From assembly GCA_030696455.1 (NCBI GenBank), contig JAUYSH010000144.1, forward strand, positions 1-43,688: a stretch of 43,688 nt of DNA. The letters are read 5' to 3'. This DNA comes from Elusimicrobiota bacterium (GTDB taxonomy: Bacteria; Elusimicrobiota; Elusimicrobia; UBA1565; UBA9628). Position 1 is the stretch's first letter. Each line of letters begins with the position of its first letter. The notes under the pieces were generated by a model. That model ran no database searches. It had not been told where the DNA came from and worked only from the letters and a program-made list of their open reading frames with translations. A program made the position numbers and the translations under genes. Shown one piece after another: positions 1 to 41,706 of this stretch.

Positions 1-3
1 CAT

Positions 4-77
4 AGCTCGCCTCCTTTTTGTGGCTCTGTGTTTCCCTTAGACCGGGACATAACCCACGATACAAAGGACGGCGAGCT
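4..77. repeat. Interrupted inverted repeat with one unpaired base
   Basis: Positions 4-17 (AGCTCGCCTCCTTT) can pair with 63-77, giving 14 base pairs with a single unpaired C at 69 and a loop of about 45 nt. A long stem with an extrahelical base is reminiscent of an attC stem like the one at 722-802, but no GTTRRRY box follows at the expected distance (82-90 only resembles it at the end, ATGC) and the other end lies outside the window. It could be a decayed cassette end or an unrelated hairpin. Seen in sequence; function unknown. Confidence 0.35.
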
Positions 78-121
78 TTTGCTTTCATGCAACCATTGTG
101 TCCAGGCCCCCACCCTGAGTC

Positions 122-150
122 TTGACATTTGTATATGTCCATAGTATACT
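122..150 (+). promoter_or_regulatory. Sigma70-type promoter of brnT (leaderless)
   Basis: TTGACA (122-127) and TATACT (145-150) are separated by exactly 17 bp. The start codon GTG begins at 157, six bases after the -10 box, so the transcript should begin at or next to the start codon. Two features could be operator sites: a direct repeat TGACATT at 123-129 and 150-156, and an inverted repeat GTATA (131-135) / TATAC (145-149). BrnTA-type modules are autoregulated by the antitoxin or the complex, so binding here would be expected. Confidence 0.8.
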
Positions 151-156
151 GACATT

Positions 157-462
157 GTGAGCGACACGGATTTCTCCAGGCATCTCGGATTCGAATGGGA
201 CAAGGAGAACTCCGAGAAGATCTGGCGCAAGCACAAAGTCAGTCCGTTCGAGTGCGAACAGATTTTCTTCAATCAGCCACTCATCGTAGCGCCTGACGAG
301 TCGCACTCGCATTCAGAACCTCGGTTTTATGTGCTCGGCCGCACCGACGCAATACGGCTTCTTTTTCTCGTTTTCACCACAAGGAAGCACCTGATCCGAG
401 TTATCTCAGCTCGCGACATGAGCCGAGCGGAGAAAGAGGTCTACAAGAATCATGAAGAATAA
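157..462 (+). CDS. brnT: BrnT-family type II toxin
   Basis: This 101-aa protein has the BrnT signature: an FEWD motif near residue 13, a KHKVS motif about ten residues later, a central GRTD stretch and a C-terminal RVISARDMS...E..Y segment. BrnT toxins are RelE-fold ribonucleases that cut RNA and stop growth until bound by BrnA. The start is GTG at 157, just after a perfect promoter and with no ribosome-binding site, so translation is probably leaderless. The 3' end overlaps the antitoxin gene by 11 bp, the usual toxin-first order of brnTA. The region is less GC-rich than the rest of the window and is followed by an attC-like site, which suggests acquisition as a mobile cassette. Confidence 0.9.
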   Translation: MSDTDFSRHLGFEWDKENSEKIWRKHKVSPFECEQIFFNQPLIVAPDESHSHSEPRFYVLGRTDAIRLLFLVFTTRKHLIRVISARDMSRAEKEVYKNHEE

Positions 463-727
463 AATCCCGAAGTTTAAGAGTGAATCCGATGAGCGGACTT
501 TTTGGGCATCGCATGATTCAGCTGATTATGTGGATTGGAAGAAGGGAAAGAATGTCATTTTTCCCAATCTGCGCCCTTCCCTTCGGTCCATTTCTCTACG
601 CCTACCCGAATCGATGATTGAAGAGCTTCGGCTTCTGGCAAATAAGCGGGATGTGCCTTATCAGTCACTCCTGAAAATGTTCTTGTCAGAGCGTATCGCA
701 AAAGAACTTAGGCCTCATGGGGCCTAA
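452..727 (+). CDS. brnA: BrnA/CopG-type antitoxin
   Basis: The 91-aa product begins with the typical KIPKFKSE...ERTFWASHDSADYVDW segment that wraps a BrnT/YoeB-like toxin, followed by a ribbon-helix-helix DNA-binding domain (SISLRLPESMIEELRLLANKRD, residues about 48-70) and VPYQSLLKMFLSERI. It should neutralise the upstream toxin and repress the shared promoter at 122-150. Its ATG lies inside the end of the toxin gene (11-bp overlap), so the two are translationally coupled. The TAA stop falls within the 5' box of the attC-like element at 722-802, as is common in integron cassettes. Confidence 0.9.
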   Translation: MKNKIPKFKSESDERTFWASHDSADYVDWKKGKNVIFPNLRPSLRSISLRLPESMIEELRLLANKRDVPYQSLLKMFLSERIAKELRPHGA

Positions 728-802
728 CCATTGGCTTGACCAGCCGGCGGCCTCGTTTGGTTGGACAGTTGAAGCCGCCGCTGGTCAGCCCCTGCGTTAT
801 GC
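722..802 (+). other. Putative integron attC recombination site
   Basis: The 81-bp element starts with GCCTAAC (722-728, fits RYYYAAC) and ends with GTTATGC (796-802, one mismatch to GTTRRRY); the two boxes are complementary at 6 of 7 positions. Inside, 733-751 pairs with 774-790 to form a 17-bp stem with two unpaired bases on one arm (T737 and C745), which matches the extrahelical bases used by integron integrases to recognise folded attC strands. The loop is 752-773. Position directly after a cassette-sized gene pair, overlapping its stop codon, also fits. No integrase gene lies in the window. Confidence 0.7.
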
Positions 803-822
803 GTCAGCCGGTGGGAGGGGCC

Positions 823-852
823 TTGACAAAGCGTACGTCTTCCGGTACGCTT
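823..852 (+). promoter_or_regulatory. Promoter with perfect palindromic operator for yefM-yoeB
   Basis: TTGACA (823-828) and TACGCT (846-851) are spaced by 17 bp. Between and over them lies a perfect inverted repeat, AAGCGTAC (829-836) and GTACGCTT (845-852), with an 8-bp centre. YefM/Phd antitoxins repress their own operons by binding palindromes over the promoter, so this is the likely operator. Transcription should start near 858, leaving a leader of about 11 nt with GGAG at 858-861. Confidence 0.8.
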
Positions 853-868
853 ACAGTGGAGATCAAAA

Positions 869-1111
869 ATGACCACTCTAACCGCCAGCTCTGCCAGAGC
901 AAAGCTTTACAAGCTCCTTGATCAGGCGGCTACTTCCCATGAGCCGATTCAAATCACCGGGAAGCGCTCGAGCGCTGTTCTTATCTCCGAGGAGGATTGG
1001 CGCTCGATCCAGGAAACCCTCCATCTGATCTCGATTCCCGGGATGCGCGAGTCCATTCGTGCCGGCCTCAAGGCGCCCGCAAGCAAGCTGTCTAAGAAGC
1101 TCTCTTGGTGA
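869..1111 (+). CDS. YefM/Phd-family antitoxin
   Basis: The 80-aa protein has the Phd/YefM N-terminal DNA-binding fold: TLTASSARAKLYKLLDQA, then EPIQITGKRSSAVLISEEDWRSIQETLHL, followed by a charged tail (GMRESIRAGLKAPASKL) that would bind the toxin. It should block the downstream YoeB-like RNase and repress the operon through the palindrome at 829-852. GGAG at 858-861 sits seven bases before the ATG. The stop codon overlaps the toxin start (GTGA at 1108-1111). It lies just beyond the attC-like site and could be a second cassette. Confidence 0.9.
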   Translation: MTTLTASSARAKLYKLLDQAATSHEPIQITGKRSSAVLISEEDWRSIQETLHLISIPGMRESIRAGLKAPASKLSKKLSW

Positions 1112-1371
1112 ACTGGCAGCTCGCCTTTACCAAGCAAGCCCAAAAAGACTCGAAGAAGCTCTCATCCGCCGAATTAAGGCCGAAGGCGGAAGTACTGCTT
1201 GAAGTCCTGAGGAAGAACCCATTTCAGACTCCGCCCCCCTACGAAAAGCTGGTCGGTGATCTGGCTGGCGCGTACTCGAGGCGCATCAACATCCAGCACC
1301 GCTTGGTCTATCAGGTTTTGCCGGAAATCAAAACCGTGAAAGTCATTCGGCTTTGGACTCACTACGAATGA
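1108..1371 (+). CDS. YoeB/Txe-family toxin
   Basis: The 87-aa product matches the YoeB family from end to end: QKDSKKL near the start, NPFQTPPPYEKLVGDL in the middle, then YSRRINIQHRLVYQV and a C-terminal IRLWTHYE. The Glu of YEKL, the Arg pair in SRRIN and the His in THYE match the catalytic Glu, Arg and His of E. coli YoeB, a ribosome-dependent mRNA endonuclease. The chosen start is GTG at 1108, which overlaps the antitoxin TGA by four bases; a TTG at 1105 is also possible. No attC-like site was found in the 70 bp after the gene. Confidence 0.9.
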   Translation: MNWQLAFTKQAQKDSKKLSSAELRPKAEVLLEVLRKNPFQTPPPYEKLVGDLAGAYSRRINIQHRLVYQVLPEIKTVKVIRLWTHYE

Positions 1372-2178: not shown

Positions 2179-2994
2179 ATGCGCCCCCTCCTCCTCGCCG
2201 CCGCCCAAGCCGCCCCCGTCTGCACCGACGGTATCGCGCCGCGTACCGCCGGGAAGTTCTGCGACAACGTCGAGGACTGCATGACGTTCTGCTCCTGCGC
2301 GTGCACCTTCGACTCGACGAAGTGGAAGAGCGGCGTCAAGAACGACGGCTCGACGACCTGCCCCGGCATGTCCGAGACGGGTGTCGGGATGCTGGCCCCG
2401 GACTCCGGCGTCCTGCGCGACCTGACCGCGCTGGCCCATATCTCCTTTCGCGCCGGAACGCGCGCCACCCAGGACGTCCTCGACGGCCTGCAAAGGCTCA
2501 GCGACCACCTGGCGGCCTCGCCGGAGCGCACGCGCCTGGGCTACACCGTGCACGTGAAAAGCTGCTACCGCAGCCACCTCATCGACACCATCCCCGAGTG
2601 CGGCTTCGTGCTCAAGGCCAAGCACATGCTCGCCAAGAAGGACCTCACGGAGGAGAAGCGCGCCTATTGGCTCGACCGGGCCAACCCGCAGAACCTGGGG
2701 CTTTCCTGGCCCGGACGCACTCCCCACAGCGGAGGCTACGCCTGCGACTTGATCCTGCTCGACTCCGCCGGGCGCGACTGCTTCGACTGGCGCGCGGGCG
2801 TGCCCGGCACGCCGACGTGCTCCATCGCGCAGAAGACCGCCTCGTCGATCATGGACGAGGCCGCGACCAACACGACGGTGGGCGGCCGGCGCCTACGCTA
2901 CGAGGCGTGGCACTACGAGTGGGGGCCCAGCGCCTCGGGCTGCACGCACCCGGACTGCGGCGACAAGCACTGGCCGCCGACGGGCAGGCCGTAG
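2179..2994 (+). CDS. Exported Cys-rich M15-type D-Ala-D-Ala peptidase
   Basis: The 271-aa protein has the zinc-site pattern of M15 peptidases (VanX/VanY/DdpX): His183 and Asp190 in TPHSGGYACD, then Glu242 and His245 in YEAWHYEW. These enzymes cut D-Ala-containing peptides of the cell wall in the periplasm. A short signal-like segment (MRPLLLAAAQAAP) precedes a region with six cysteines between residues 15 and 42 (including FCSCAC), and more Cys pairs occur later (C201, C214, C255, C260), suggesting a disulfide-stabilised exported enzyme. The Cys-rich head is unusual for M15 and may be a binding module. The last 82 bp overlap the convergent MATE gene. Confidence 0.8.
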   Translation: MRPLLLAAAQAAPVCTDGIAPRTAGKFCDNVEDCMTFCSCACTFDSTKWKSGVKNDGSTTCPGMSETGVGMLAPDSGVLRDLTALAHISFRAGTRATQDVLDGLQRLSDHLAASPERTRLGYTVHVKSCYRSHLIDTIPECGFVLKAKHMLAKKDLTEEKRAYWLDRANPQNLGLSWPGRTPHSGGYACDLILLDSAGRDCFDWRAGVPGTPTCSIAQKTASSIMDEAATNTTVGGRRLRYEAWHYEWGPSASGCTHPDCGDKHWPPTGRP

Positions 2995-4304
2995 GTCAGC
3001 CGCCGCCATTCGCGCCCGAGGAGCAGCGCCACCGACGCCAGGCCCGCGACGAGGCCGATCCAGACGCCGACCGCGCCCCAGCCCAGGCCGAAGGCCAGCG
3101 TCAGGCCCACCGGCAGGCCGATGAGCCAGTGGGCGAGAACGTTGATGTAGAGCGGACGGCGCGTCTCGCCCAGGCCGCGCAGGGCCCCGGTGAGCACGGC
3201 CTGCGCCCCGTCGAAGATCTGGAAGGCGGCGCCGCAGTACAGCAGGGGCTTGGCGCGGGCCACGAGCGCGGCGTCGGCGCCGAACAGCCCCAGGATCGGC
3301 TCGGGAAAGACCGCGAAGATCAGCCCGGTGCAGGCCATGAAGACCACGCTCATGGCCGTCGCCGCGTTGCCGGCCGCCGCGGCCGTCCACGGCTCGCCGC
3401 GGCCCAGGGCCTGTCCCACGCGCGTGGCGGCCGCGTGCGAGAGCCCCATCGGGATCATGAAGGTCAGGCTCGCCAGGTTCAAGGTGAGCTGATGCGCGGC
3501 CAGGACCTCGGCTCCGAGGCGCCCGACGAGCGCGGTCGCCAACGAGAACACCGCCACCTCGACGGCCATCGCCGCGCCTCCGGGCAGGCCCAACTTGGCC
3601 ACGTCCCAGAACAGACGCCGGTGCCAGCCGTGGAACTTGAAGGCGATCGCGCGCAGGCGGCTCCAGGACGCGAAAGCGACCGCCGCGAACATCACGACGT
3701 TGGCCGCCAGCGAGGCGTAGGCTGAGCCCGGCACCCCCAGGCGCGGCGCGCCCAGGCTTCCGAAGATGAGGAGGTAGTCGAGCGCCGCGTTGACGAGGTT
3801 GCCCGCGACGATCGCGACGAGCAAGGGGGTGGTGACCGACATCGACTGCAGGAACTGGCGGCAGGCCACGAAGCACAGGCCGGGGAACACCCCCCAGCGC
3901 AAAATGGAAAGGTACTCGACGGCCCCCTCGGCGGCGCGCGGGTCCACGCCGATGAGGCGGAAGGCCCAGCCGGCGAGGCCGCACAGGAAGAAGGCCGGCA
4001 GCGCCACGGCAAGGGCAAGGACGAGCGTGTGCACGAGGAGCTGGCCGCACAGGTCGGGGCGGCCCGCGCCGAACGCCTTCGAGGAGTGGCTGTCGATGCC
4101 CATGACGATCCCCATGCCCACGACGAAGCACGTGAAGTACGTCATCGAGCCCAGGCCGACCGAGGCGATCGCGACGGGGCCCAGGCGCCCGACGAAGAGC
4201 ATGTCGACGGTGCCGTACAGCACCATCCCGATCTGGGTGAGCGCGATGGGCCCGGCGAGCTTGAGGACGGAGCGGGCCTCGGGCCACGGAAATTCGATCT
4301 TCAC
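2913..4304 (-). CDS. MATE-family multidrug/Na+ efflux transporter
   Basis: The 463-aa polytopic protein has two repeated bundles of six membrane segments, with the MATE hallmarks GPIALTQIGMVLYGTVDMLFVGRLG near the start and PGGAAMAVEVAVFSLATALVGRLGAEVLAAHQ at the second half. MATE (NorM/DinF-like) carriers exchange drugs or metabolites for Na+ or H+ across the inner membrane. The start is GTG at 4304; TAAAAT (on the minus strand, 4315-4310) ends five bases before it, so the mRNA is probably leaderless. The C-terminal tail of about 27 residues after the last helix runs antisense through the end of the M15 gene and is probably a read-on extension rather than a conserved part. Confidence 0.9.
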   Translation of the reverse strand: MKIEFPWPEARSVLKLAGPIALTQIGMVLYGTVDMLFVGRLGPVAIASVGLGSMTYFTCFVVGMGIVMGIDSHSSKAFGAGRPDLCGQLLVHTLVLALAVALPAFFLCGLAGWAFRLIGVDPRAAEGAVEYLSILRWGVFPGLCFVACRQFLQSMSVTTPLLVAIVAGNLVNAALDYLLIFGSLGAPRLGVPGSAYASLAANVVMFAAVAFASWSRLRAIAFKFHGWHRRLFWDVAKLGLPGGAAMAVEVAVFSLATALVGRLGAEVLAAHQLTLNLASLTFMIPMGLSHAAATRVGQALGRGEPWTAAAAGNAATAMSVVFMACTGLIFAVFPEPILGLFGADAALVARAKPLLYCGAAFQIFDGAQAVLTGALRGLGETRRPLYINVLAHWLIGLPVGLTLAFGLGWGAVGVWIGLVAGLASVALLLGREWRRLTYGLPVGGQCLSPQSGCVQPEALGPHS

Positions 4305-4378: not shown

Positions 4379-4951
4379 ATGAACGATCAGGACCGCTTGC
4401 GGGACCTCAAGGCGCGCCTCCCCGGTTCCGTGGAGAGCCTCGTCGAGGAGTTCACCTCCCCCCTCATGGCGGCCGCGCGCTCCTGGGGCCTGTCCGAGCG
4501 CGACGCGGAAGAGGCCGTTCAGGACAGCCTGACCGATTTTTTGACCGCCATCGAGCGGTTCGAGGGACGCTCCACGCTCAAAACCTTCCTGTTCGGCGTT
4601 CTGTATCACAAGTGCTCCGAGCGCCGCCGCAAGAACAAGCGGGAGCAGGCGACCGAGGACATGGAGGCGGCCTTCGCGGGACGCTTCGGCGCCCTCGGCG
4701 TCTGGAACAGCCTGCCTCGCGGCCCGGAAGAAGAGGCCGTCAACGACGAGCTCAAGGCCTGGCTCGAGGAATGCGCCAGGGGCCTCTCCGACGAGCAAAG
4801 GTCCGCTTTTCAGCTGAAGACCGTGGAGGGCGCGTCCACGGAGGACGCCTGTAAGATAATCGGGGTCTCAGCCACGAATCTCGGGGTGCTCATGTTCCGG
4901 GCTCGCAACAAGCTGCGCGAATGCCTCGAGAAGAAATGGACGAAACGATGA
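4379..4951 (+). CDS. ECF-type RNA polymerase sigma factor (copy 1)
   Basis: The 190-aa protein has sigma region 2 (DAEEAVQDSLTDFLTAIERF, then STLKTFLFGVLYHKCSERRRKN, residues about 40-85) and region 4 with a helix-turn-helix (ACKIIGVSATNLGVLMFRARNKLRECLE, residues about 155-183). It should direct polymerase to stress promoters. The start at 4379 is preferred over the ATG at 4367 because TAGGAT (4363-4368) looks like its -10 element. The anti-sigma gene overlaps it by four bases. Its place at the head of a lipid-modification cluster, with a photolyase downstream, suggests an oxidative or light-stress regulator; that is inference. A paralogue of the same length lies at 27261-27833. Confidence 0.88.
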   Translation: MNDQDRLRDLKARLPGSVESLVEEFTSPLMAAARSWGLSERDAEEAVQDSLTDFLTAIERFEGRSTLKTFLFGVLYHKCSERRRKNKREQATEDMEAAFAGRFGALGVWNSLPRGPEEEAVNDELKAWLEECARGLSDEQRSAFQLKTVEGASTEDACKIIGVSATNLGVLMFRARNKLRECLEKKWTKR

Positions 4952-5184
4952 GCTGGATCCCTTCATGCTCGGATGTGGCGCGCGCGGTCAGCGACGACTC
5001 GTATAACGAGGCCTCGCCGTCCCGCCGCATCATGCTGCGCCTGCACATGGCCGTCTGCTGGTTCTGCCGGCGTTACGCCGCGCAGATCCGGTGGATCGAC
5101 CGGGCGGCCCGTGAAACCTGGGGCGCACCCGCTCCCCGCGACGCGGACGTCAAGCGCCGCCTCATCGCCCGCCTCAAATCCTGA
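4948..5184 (+). CDS. Zinc-binding cytoplasmic anti-sigma factor (copy 1)
   Basis: This 78-aa protein shows the ZAS/zf-HC2 pattern: a Cys in PSCSDV near the start, then HMAVCWFC (His-x3-Cys-x2-Cys, residues about 32-39). Such domains sequester ECF sigma factors and release them when the zinc site is oxidised or the protein is degraded. There is no membrane segment and no cupin domain, so it is a minimal soluble form. The start at 4948 (ATGA overlap with the sigma stop) is chosen because it begins MSWIPSC, matching MSFLPSC of the second anti-sigma at 27205; in-frame ATGs at 4921 and 4936 are alternatives. Confidence 0.82.
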   Translation: MSWIPSCSDVARAVSDDSYNEASPSRRIMLRLHMAVCWFCRRYAAQIRWIDRAARETWGAPAPRDADVKRRLIARLKS

Positions 5185-5310: not shown

Positions 5311-6105
5311 ATGGCCCCCCCGGACATCATGAACCAGGCGACAACCCTCATCGTAGGCTGGCTCGTCCTCTGCGCCTTCTTCGCGGCGCTGTGGACCATT
5401 CAGCGCTGGACCAAGGACGCGAGCCTCGTGGACGTCGGCTGGGCCGCGAGCCTGGGGTTTCTGGCACTTCTTTGCGCGGCCGTCCTGCCCGGGGACCCTG
5501 GACGCCGCCTGCTCATCGGTGCGATGGGAGCGCTGTGGTCGGCGCGCTTGGCCTGGCACCTATATATCGACCGGGTACGCGGCAAGGACGAAGACGGCCG
5601 TTACGCGGCGCTGCGCGCGTCGTGGGGCGAAAACGCCGATCGCAACTTCTTCTGGTTCTTCCAGGCCCAGGGCGCGTTGGCGGCGCTGCTGGCTCTTCCC
5701 TTCGCCGCGCTGGCGGCCCGTTCCGGGGAGCTCGGGCTCCTCGACGCCGCCGGCGCGGCTCTGTGGCTTATCGGCGTCGCGGGAGAACGCGCGGCCGACG
5801 CGACCTTGGCCCGCTTCCGCGCCGACCCGTCCAACAAAGGGAAGACCTGCCGCGAAGGGCTGTGGCGCTACTCCCGCCATCCCAATTATTTCTTCGAGTG
5901 GACGCACTGGCTCGCCTACGCGCTGATGGCCCCGATCCTCTGGCAGGTCTGGCTCTCCCCCGCCGTGATGCTTTATTTTCTGCTGCGCGTGACCGGCATC
6001 CCCGCGACCGAGGAGCAGGCTCTGCGCTCCCGCGGCGAGGACTACCGGCGCTATCAGCGCGAGACGTCGATGTTCATTCCCTGGTTCCCCCGGAGGGCCG
6101 CGTGA
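5311..6105 (+). CDS. DUF1295 membrane protein (steroid 5-alpha-reductase-like)
   Basis: The 264-aa protein has about six membrane segments and the DUF1295 signature: SLVDVGWAASLGF near residue 40, RLAWHLYIDRVRGKDEDGRY, a fixed FFWFFQAQ, and the C-terminal LWRYSRHPNYFFEWTHW with EDYRRYQRETSMFIPWFP. The family belongs to the steroid-reductase/isoprenylcysteine methyltransferase fold; its exact substrate is not known to me, but it recurs beside CFA-like methyltransferases, DUF1365 and FAD enzymes. The ATG at 5311 has GGGAG only three bases upstream; ATG 5329 is an alternative start. The TGA overlaps the next gene by GTGA, so expression is coupled. Confidence 0.85.
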   Translation: MAPPDIMNQATTLIVGWLVLCAFFAALWTIQRWTKDASLVDVGWAASLGFLALLCAAVLPGDPGRRLLIGAMGALWSARLAWHLYIDRVRGKDEDGRYAALRASWGENADRNFFWFFQAQGALAALLALPFAALAARSGELGLLDAAGAALWLIGVAGERAADATLARFRADPSNKGKTCREGLWRYSRHPNYFFEWTHWLAYALMAPILWQVWLSPAVMLYFLLRVTGIPATEEQALRSRGEDYRRYQRETSMFIPWFPRRAA

Positions 6106-39677: not shown

Positions 39678-40780
39678 AGGGCCGGCACCGCCATCGCCGT
39701 CCTGCCGTTGAGGAACCAGGTCGTCATCGGACCCTTGCCCTTGACGTCGATGAGGCCGCGCTTCTCGCAGGAGAACGGCTCCGTCAGCCGCCCGCGGGTC
39801 GCCTCGGTCATTTGGACGCGCCCGGGGACCCCGTTGGACTCCATGCGGCTGGCCGTGTTGACGGCGTCGCCCCACAGGTCGTAGAGGAACTTGCTGCGCC
39901 CGATGACGCCCGCCACGACCGGGCCGGTGTCGAGGCCGATGCGGATGTTCAGCCCGCGGCCGCCGGCGTTGAAGGCGGCCACGGCGTCGAGCATGTCCAG
40001 CGCCGCGTCCGCGGCCCGCGCCGCGTGGTCCGCGGCCGGGATGGGAAGCCCCGCCGCGGCCATGTAGCAGTCGCCGATCGTCTTGATCTTCTCGAGGCCG
40101 CGGCGATCGGCGATGCGGTCGAAGCGGCTGAAGAGGTCGTTGAGCACCCCCACGAGGACCTCCGCGCCGACGCTCTGCGAGAACTTCGTGAAGCCGACGA
40201 TGTCCGCGAAGAGCACCGTCACCTCCGGGAAGCCGTCGGCGATGATATCCGTGAAGCCGTCGCCCGCGACCTCGGGCCGGCCCTTCAAGCGCACGGCGAT
40301 GGAGTAGGGCAGGACGTTGCGCAGCAGCCGCTCCGACATCTTCTGCTCGACGACGACCTGCTCGTAGAGGGCCTTCGTCTTCAGATGCAGGAGGCGGACC
40401 TCGAGGAGGTTGTGGACGCGGAGCAGGACCTCCGTGAGGTCGAAGGGCTTGCTGACGAAGTCGCGCGCGCCGGCGTTCAGCGCCCGCAGCTTATGATCGG
40501 GCTGGGCCGTGAGCACCAGGACCGGGAGATAGCCGTCGGTCTCGAGCTCCTTGAGGTCCTCCATCACCGCGAAGCCGTCCATCCCGGGCATCTGAAGATC
40601 GAGGAGGATCAGGTCGTAGCGGTGCGCCCGGTGCAGAGCCTTGACCTCGGAGGGGTCCATGGTGGCCTTCACGCAGATGTAGCCGGCCGACAGGAGCATG
40701 CGCTGGAGCAGCTGGATGTTGGATTTCTTGTCGTCGACGATGAGGATCCGCGCGCTCAGGATCTCGGCGGCCGCGATCAT
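39674..40780 (-). CDS. Response regulator with class III adenylate cyclase domain
   Basis: The 368-aa protein has a REC domain (ILIVDDKKSNIQLLQ, phosphoacceptor Asp in LILLDLQMPG, Lys in FVSKPFDL) and a class III cyclase domain: VTVLFADIVGFTKFS with the first metal Asp, KIKTIGDCYMAAAG with the second metal Asp and the Lys typical of ATP use, and LYDLWGDAVNTASRMES with the second adenine-specifying Asp. It should make cAMP under control of phosphorylation. The ATG overlaps the REC-GGDEF stop (TGATG). Its REC is very similar to that of the neighbour, a sign of recent duplication. Confidence 0.92.
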   Translation of the reverse strand: MIAAAEILSARILIVDDKKSNIQLLQRMLLSAGYICVKATMDPSEVKALHRAHRYDLILLDLQMPGMDGFAVMEDLKELETDGYLPVLVLTAQPDHKLRALNAGARDFVSKPFDLTEVLLRVHNLLEVRLLHLKTKALYEQVVVEQKMSERLLRNVLPYSIAVRLKGRPEVAGDGFTDIIADGFPEVTVLFADIVGFTKFSQSVGAEVLVGVLNDLFSRFDRIADRRGLEKIKTIGDCYMAAAGLPIPAADHAARAADAALDMLDAVAAFNAGGRGLNIRIGLDTGPVVAGVIGRSKFLYDLWGDAVNTASRMESNGVPGRVQMTEATRGRLTEPFSCEKRGLIDVKGKGPMTTWFLNGRTAMAVPAL

Positions 40781-41706
40781 CACGCGGCCACGCGCACGGC
40801 GTTCTTGCCCGCGCGCTTGGCCTCGTACAGGGCCGAGTCGGCCTTCTTCATCAGCGCCTCCGCGTCTTCGCCGTGGACCGGGAACAAGCCGACGCCCGCG
40901 CTGGCGGTCACCCCGACGGCCTTGCCGTCGATGAGGTACGGCTGCGCCACCATCTCGATGATCTTCGACGCGACGCCCGCGGCGTCCTCGGGGCCGCCGA
41001 CGTGCCACAGCGCGACGGCGAACTCGTCGCCCCCCAGCCGGGCCGCGGTGTCCTCGGCGCGGATCGCGAGCTCGAGGCGCCGCGCGACCAGCTTCAGCAG
41101 GATATCCCCGGTCCCGTGGCCGAGCTCGTCGTTGATCATCTTGAAGCCGTCGAGGTCGAGATAGACGACCGCCATCGCGCTCTTGTTGCGCTTGGCGTGC
41201 TCGAGCCCCATCGCCATCTTCTCGGACAGCAGGCGCCGGTTGGCGAGGCCGGTCAGCGGATCGTTGAGGGCCAGCGCCTCGAGCAGCCGGCCGTGGTCGA
41301 CGGCGGCCTTGTGCAGCAGGCGGACCTCCAGCATGTTGCGCACGCGCATGAGCACCTCGGAGAGGTCGAAGGGCTTGCTGATGAAGTCCCGCGCGCCGCC
41401 GTACAGCGCCCGCAGCTTGTGCCCGGGATGCGCGGTGACCGCCAGCACCGGCAGGTAGCCCTCGGGATCGAGCTCCTTGAGCGCGTCCATCACCTCGAAG
41501 CCGTTCATGCCCGGCATCTCGAGGTCGAGCAGGATCAGGTCGTAGGCGTTGGCGCGATGCAGGTCCCGGACCGCCCTCGGATCCGTCGTGGAGGCGACCC
41601 CGGAGTAGCCGGCGCCGGACAGCATCTTCTCGAGGAGGAGGACGTTGGTCTTGCTGTCGTCGACGATCAGCAGCTTCGCGTTCAGGATCGCGGAGGTGCT
41701 GATCAC
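40780..41706 (-). CDS. Response regulator diguanylate cyclase (REC-GGDEF)
   Basis: The 308-aa protein has REC (LLIVDDSKTNVLLL, Asp in LILLDLEMPG, FISKPFDL) and a GGDEF domain with DPLTGLANRR and an intact LGGDEF motif, so it should make c-di-GMP. RAED stands five residues before GGDEF, which is the canonical inhibitory I-site (RxxD), so the product should feed back. The start is GTG at 41706, overlapping the kinase stop (GTGA). Together with the kinase and the adenylate cyclase it forms a three-gene signalling unit. Confidence 0.94.
   Translation of the reverse strand: MISTSAILNAKLLIVDDSKTNVLLLEKMLSGAGYSGVASTTDPRAVRDLHRANAYDLILLDLEMPGMNGFEVMDALKELDPEGYLPVLAVTAHPGHKLRALYGGARDFISKPFDLSEVLMRVRNMLEVRLLHKAAVDHGRLLEALALNDPLTGLANRRLLSEKMAMGLEHAKRNKSAMAVVYLDLDGFKMINDELGHGTGDILLKLVARRLELAIRAEDTAARLGGDEFAVALWHVGGPEDAAGVASKIIEMVAQPYLIDGKAVGVTASAGVGLFPVHGEDAEALMKKADSALYEAKRAGKNAVRVAA

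What the first reader, a model, noticed from the sequence alone, without database searches (positions are those of the whole stretch)
722..802. attC-like site next to two toxin-antitoxin modules suggests the end of a chromosomal integron cassette array
The element has consensus-type end boxes, a 17-bp imperfect stem and two extrahelical bases, and overlaps the stop codon of brnA. Both TA modules carry their own promoters, which is how TA cassettes stabilise otherwise silent integron arrays. Integrons are described in many phyla, but this kind of uncultured-type chromosome is a less familiar host.
Basis: partly seen in the sequence, partly recalled or inferred. Interest (0 to 1): 0.7.

Follow-up and report, generated by a model that had tools for sequence, protein, structure and literature searches.

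The report
Tail end of a chromosomal integron
The spot is a genuine recombination site at the far end of a small chromosomal gene-capture array (an integron) in an uncultured bacterium: its last two captured cassettes are toxin-antitoxin pairs and it is cut by an insertion sequence that targets such sites, which makes it a well-documented example of a known kind of system in an unfamiliar host.

Summary
A covariance model built from 12 other attC sites of the same genome, leaving this one out, scores window 722-802 (bottom strand) at 91.6 bits, E 2.7e-25. The hairpin shows many compensatory changes and two constant extrahelical bases. The genome has three full IntI integrases and about 20 attC sites. 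The window begins inside an IS1111-type insertion sequence; the same IS splits attC R' boxes at two other places in the genome. Synteny with relatives and exclusion show that the window is the distal half of the integron whose intI lies on contig C54. brnT-brnA is the second-last cassette and ends in the attC. phd-yoeB is the last cassette: its first six bases (TTATGC) belong to it, and in three other species of the genus the same module is followed by its own attC with R'' GCATAAC. In the window that attC is lost. The array stops at a HEAT-repeat gene, the same right border in two relatives. [quoted passage not shown] New member of a known kind; the host phylum was not named.

The parts
1..103 (-). 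End (upstream of the transposase gene) of an IS1111-type insertion sequence, cut by the contig end; subterminal repeat at 84-96
   Evidence: 99% over 105 bp to the complete copy on C132, 93% to the copy on C40; junctions; 7-bp outer flank rule from PMC11187229
104..796 (+). brnT-brnA gene cassette, second last of the array; its leading TT lies on the other side of the IS (end of contig C54)
   Evidence: AGGC at 104-107 matches the complement of its own R'' GCCTAAC (TTAGGC)
122..150 (+). sigma-70-like promoter of brnT (TTGACA, 17, TATACT)
   Evidence: 11 of 12 matches
157..462 (+). BrnT-family toxin gene
   Evidence: PF04365, 84.8 bits
452..727 (+). CopG/BrnA-type antitoxin gene
   Evidence: PF12441, 109.3 bits
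722..802 (-). attC site; the bottom strand is the folding strand; R'' 722-728, R' 796-802, extrahelical bases at 737 and 744, expected crossover between 796 and 797
797..1371 (+). phd-yoeB cassette, last of the array, its own attC lost (diverges from relatives just after the yoeB stop)
823..852 (+). promoter-like TTGACA, 17, TACGCT with overlapping inverted repeat AAGCGTAC/GTACGCTT, likely operator of phd-yoeB
   Evidence: and sequence; conserved before the homologues
869..1111 (+). Phd/YefM-family antitoxin gene
   Evidence: PF02604, 65.1 bits
1105..1371 (+). YoeB-family toxin gene
   Evidence: PF06769, 38.8 bits
1444..2133 (+). HEAT-repeat gene, right border of the array in this species and in G016 and G003
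2913..4304 (-). MatE transporter gene, right chromosomal flank; lies beside the SPL-like gene in relatives without the integron

Best explanation
The site is a working-type attC at the distal end of a sedentary chromosomal integron. In order: SPL-like gene, intI (contig C54, 3554-4495) reading towards the cassettes, a brnTA module, a cassette-promoter/attI-like block, two cassettes, an IS1111-type IS inserted in an attC R' box, then in the window the brnTA cassette with the attC 722-802, and last the phd-yoeB cassette, which entered by IntI recombination and later lost its own attC. The HEAT-repeat gene and MatE transporter are chromosome. By established integron biology, IntI would bind the folded bottom strand of the attC and cut beside the GTT of R' to move cassettes. 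The brnTA cassette's upstream partner site is split by the IS and phd-yoeB has no attC, so both are probably hard to excise now. Each TA pair has a promoter-like sequence of its own and would penalise its own loss, as shown for TA cassettes in V. cholerae. Shown by sequence: attC structure, IntI genes, cassette end rule, IS junctions, mobility of phd-yoeB between places in the genus, conserved chromosomal site. Inferred: the C54-window join, recombination activity, stabilisation by the TA pairs.
For: Leave-one-out attC model 91.6 bits; covariation; three IntI over the curated cut-off; about 20 attC in the genome and attC in 16 of 19 genomes of the genus; SPL-intI on C54 and attC-HEAT-MatE here, SPL next to MatE without integron in G015 and G001, same arrangement as here in G016 and G003; C117 and C132 shown to be one integron by a single G006 contig, which leaves C54 and the window as partners; the six bases after G of R' equal the complement of the next cassette's R'' in 3 of 4 uninterrupted pairs and 5 of 6 bases in the fourth; phd-yoeB with its own attC in G005, G018, G016; G+C 0.49-0.57 in the array against about 0.7 beyond.
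Against: The C54-window join crosses an IS copy that the assembly does not span; it rests on synteny and exclusion. The genome is a 147-contig assembly with 2.5% estimated contamination. No independent published attC model could be run; the model used comes from paralogous sites. No activity was tested.
Confidence: 0.95

Rival explanations
1. A lone attC-like relic or CALIN fragment (attC sites without integrase), not part of an integron that has an integrase.
For: Inside the window there is only one attC and no intI.
Against: The window starts in an IS copy at a contig break; synteny places the C54 intI at the other side. R'' and R' boxes and the stem are intact.
Confidence: 0.04
2. phd-yoeB is a resident chromosomal TA pair and the array ends at the attC itself.
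For: No attC follows yoeB in the window.
Against: phd-yoeB is absent at this border in G003, where HEAT starts about 40 bp after the attC, and is a cassette with its own attC in three other species; its first bases complete the R' box as the end rule predicts.
Confidence: 0.03
3. The hairpin is a rho-independent terminator or repetitive palindrome with chance resemblance to attC.
For: Stable hairpin after the brnA stop.
Against: Conserved end boxes, extrahelical bases, strand asymmetry and location at cassette ends; no T run after the stem.
Confidence: 0.01

Closest known systems
Sedentary chromosomal integrons (V. cholerae superintegron type)
   Same: intI, attC-bounded cassettes in one direction, TA cassettes with promoters of their own, fixed chromosomal site
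   Different: Short arrays here, three integrons in one genome, intI on the same strand as the cassettes, intI beside an SPL-like gene at this site
Treponema chromosomal integrons (PMC3607928)
   Different: Different host lineage; TA pair between intI and the attI-like block in two of the three integrons
attC-targeting IS1111-family insertion sequences (ISKpn4, ISPst6; [quoted passage not shown]
   Same: DEDD transposase, subterminal inverted repeats with outer flanks that fit 7 bp and 3 bp, long non-coding region after tnp, insertion into one end of attC
   Different: Transposase at most 57% identical to the best plasmid-borne relatives in the collection searched; seekRNA not demonstrated; exact target base of the known members not compared

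Membership tests
Integron | IntI tyrosine recombinase with the integron-specific insertion | tested here: met
   TIGR02249 at 422-433 bits, cut-off 265, three copies; the R, HxxR, H and Y residues and the FPATSHY...RRHHLHES stretch are present in the translations. The gene for this array is on another contig (join inferred).
Integron | attC sites with R/L boxes, extrahelical bases and bottom-strand folding | tested here: met
Integron | Array of cassettes in one direction, each starting with the complement of its own R'' | tested here: met
Integron | attI and cassette promoter | tested here: inconclusive
   A conserved block (TGGC, spacer, TACAAT-like, then GTTAGG or similar) follows intI in five integrons; no attI model was available
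Integron | IntI-catalysed cassette excision and insertion | not testable with these tools
   Only indirect: the phd-yoeB cassette sits at different places in different species
attC-targeting IS1111 family | DEDD/IS110-type transposase, subterminal inverted repeats, long non-coding region downstream of tnp | tested here: met
   PF01548 and PF02371; 13-bp repeat at both ends; about 280 nt after tnp
attC-targeting IS1111 family | Repeated insertion at one position of attC | tested here: met
   C40, C54 to window, and C117 to C132, all at GTT^AGRC
attC-targeting IS1111 family | seekRNA complementary to both strands of the target | tested here: inconclusive
   Non-coding core 96% identical between two copies against 84% for the part with the gene; one 9-nt target match, shuffle frequency 0.011 for one of three targets and not significant for the others; no bottom-strand match
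BrnT-BrnA and Phd-YoeB type II TA systems | Toxin and antitoxin domains in one operon | tested here: met
BrnT-BrnA and Phd-YoeB type II TA systems | Toxicity neutralised by the antitoxin | not testable with these tools
   needs expression tests

The most novel reading that the evidence does not exclude
In this genus the TA pairs are placed as locks on both ends of the integron: one fixed between intI and attI, one at the far end as a cassette that has lost its attC and so cannot be excised, so that the platform and the array border are protected from deletion.
Probability: 0.25. Interest if true: 0.5.

Novelty: new member of a known kind. Interest (0 to 1): 0.4.

Why it matters
It adds a lineage of uncultured bacteria with up to three chromosomal integrons in a genome (attC in 16 of 19 genomes of the genus; IntI in 17 of 248 sampled genomes of the phylum), with the less common reverse layout. 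It shows one TA cassette at different array positions in different species, and an IS of the attC-targeting type at work in the same arrays. A single-contig genome in the genus (G010) with 44 attC matches would allow a full array to be studied.

Tried and rejected
Rfam scan of the window: no family at gathering score. Chance hairpin rejected by the leave-one-out model and covariation. Window joined to C117 rather than C54: rejected because G006 shows that C117 and C132 flank one integron. My guess is Elusimicrobiota, from genome size, G+C and group structure; this is not evidence. No paper in the library held 'integron', 'attC' and 'Elusimicrobi' together. A bottom-strand match for the seekRNA was not found. 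A clear attC remnant between yoeB and the HEAT gene was looked for and not found.

Full report
Observation. The element is at 722-802 as described. R'' (GCCTAAC) and R' (GTTATGC) bound it, and it overlaps the end of the brnA frame. As single-stranded DNA the bottom strand folds at -23.9 kcal/mol, z -3.6. I took twelve homologous sites from other contigs of the same genome, built a covariance model without the window's site, and searched the window with filters off: 722-802 on the bottom strand scores 91.6 bits (E 2.7e-25), the top strand 26.6 bits, and the next place 15.7 bits. On the 13 aligned sites 93.3% of pair cells are standard pairs, 10 of 25 pairs have changes on both sides and 36 cells are compensatory; none of 500 shuffles reached the covariation score, and slid partners fall to at most 46%. 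Two columns on one side of the stem are left unpaired in the structure, the extrahelical bases.

Integrases and arrays. The genome (4.01 Mb, 147 contigs) has three complete IntI genes, on C54, C117 and C40, at 422-433 bits against a cut-off of 265, and 18-20 attC matches. In all three integrons intI lies on the same strand as the cassettes. This is the atypical layout described for Treponema (PMC3607928). In an IntI tree the three fall in a well-supported group made of the host's relatives and two genomes labelled Myxococcota; reverse and canonical layouts are clustered, not random, on the tree. Layout labels there come from which side of intI the model found attC.

The left edge of the window. 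Window 1-103 is the end of an IS that is complete on C40 and C132. It has DEDD and Transposase_20 domains, a 13-bp subterminal repeat at both ends (one mismatch in the window copy) and a long non-coding stretch after the gene: the features of the IS1111 family as given in PMC11187229. Using that paper's 7-bp and 3-bp outer flanks, the IS sits at GTT^AGRC of the attC R' box at every junction. The bases to the right of the IS are AGGC, AGAC and AGGC on C40, C132 and in the window, each the complement of that cassette's own R''. The non-coding core is 96% conserved between two copies whose upstream part, with the gene, is 84% identical, which fits an RNA-bearing region. A direct match to the target was significant for only one of three targets.

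Which integron the window belongs to. In relatives G015 and G001 the MatE gene (homologue of window 2913-4304) lies beside an SPL-like gene with no integron between. In this genome the SPL-like gene is next to intI on C54, and MatE is to the right of the window's array. G016 and G003 have SPL-intI on one contig and attC-HEAT-MatE on another. Independently, only two left IS ends (C54, C117) and two right ends (C132, window) are unpaired. One G006 contig carries the C117 left flank, intI, three attC and the C132 right flank, so C117 pairs with C132 and C54 with the window. From the C132 copy the missing piece is about 1.25 kb. This is an inference from synteny and exclusion, not a read.

The two TA modules. 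brnT-brnA is a cassette ending in the attC. phd-yoeB is also a cassette: homologues at 84-87% DNA identity in G005, G018 and G016 are followed within about 8-14 bp by an attC with R'' GCATAAC, whose complement TTATGC is exactly the start of the module in the window. In G005 it follows an attI-like sequence, in G013 another attC. In the window the sequence diverges just after the yoeB stop, so the attC of the last cassette is lost; G004 has only part of one. In G003 the HEAT gene follows the last attC by about 40 bp without phd-yoeB. The composition step agrees: G+C 0.49-0.57 up to about 1500, then about 0.7.

Mechanism. From established integron biology, IntI binds the folded bottom strand and recombines at G|TTATGC. 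Here the brnTA cassette's left partner site is split by the IS and phd-yoeB has no attC, so I infer that the end of the array is now largely fixed. TA cassettes with promoters of their own stabilise the V. cholerae array by killing cells that lose them (PMC11023631, PMC11551772). The same is plausible here but untested.

Known or new. It meets the defining features of a sedentary chromosomal integron that can be tested by sequence. A 2021 review lists 14 phyla with integrons (PMC8618304); the named genomes found here with IntI relatives already go beyond that list, so a further host lineage is not surprising. The host phylum of this window could not be named with the tools. I judge it a new member of a known kind.

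Noticed in passing
L029 (C54) 4531-5056; L031 (C40) about 5512-6083; L151 and L153 (G004, G016): A TA pair (brnTA, or mazEF on C40) sits directly after intI; on C54 and C40 it lies before the conserved cassette-promoter/attI-like block, so it looks like part of the platform rather than a cassette.
   Followed up: partly
L029 (C54) 3249-3262: CGAACATACGTTCG, a Gram-positive-type LexA-box-like palindrome, between the SPL-like gene and intI; similar boxes precede the SPL-like gene in G015, G001 and G010, but none was found at the other two intI genes.
   Followed up: partly
G010 contig C1 2928034-2959691: A single-contig genome of the genus with 44 attC matches, most in one array of about 32 kb; its intI (2960333-2961256) has one in-frame TAG.
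   Followed up: partly
L177 (G016 C39) 1-900: A different IS is inserted at the R'' side of the attC at the same chromosomal border in G016.
   Followed up: no
L029 5230-5480: Cassette without a clear ORF made of many imperfect AACGGCG-type repeats.
   Followed up: no
window 40386-40770 and 41312-41696: A direct repeat of about 385 bp, 76% identical.
   Followed up: no
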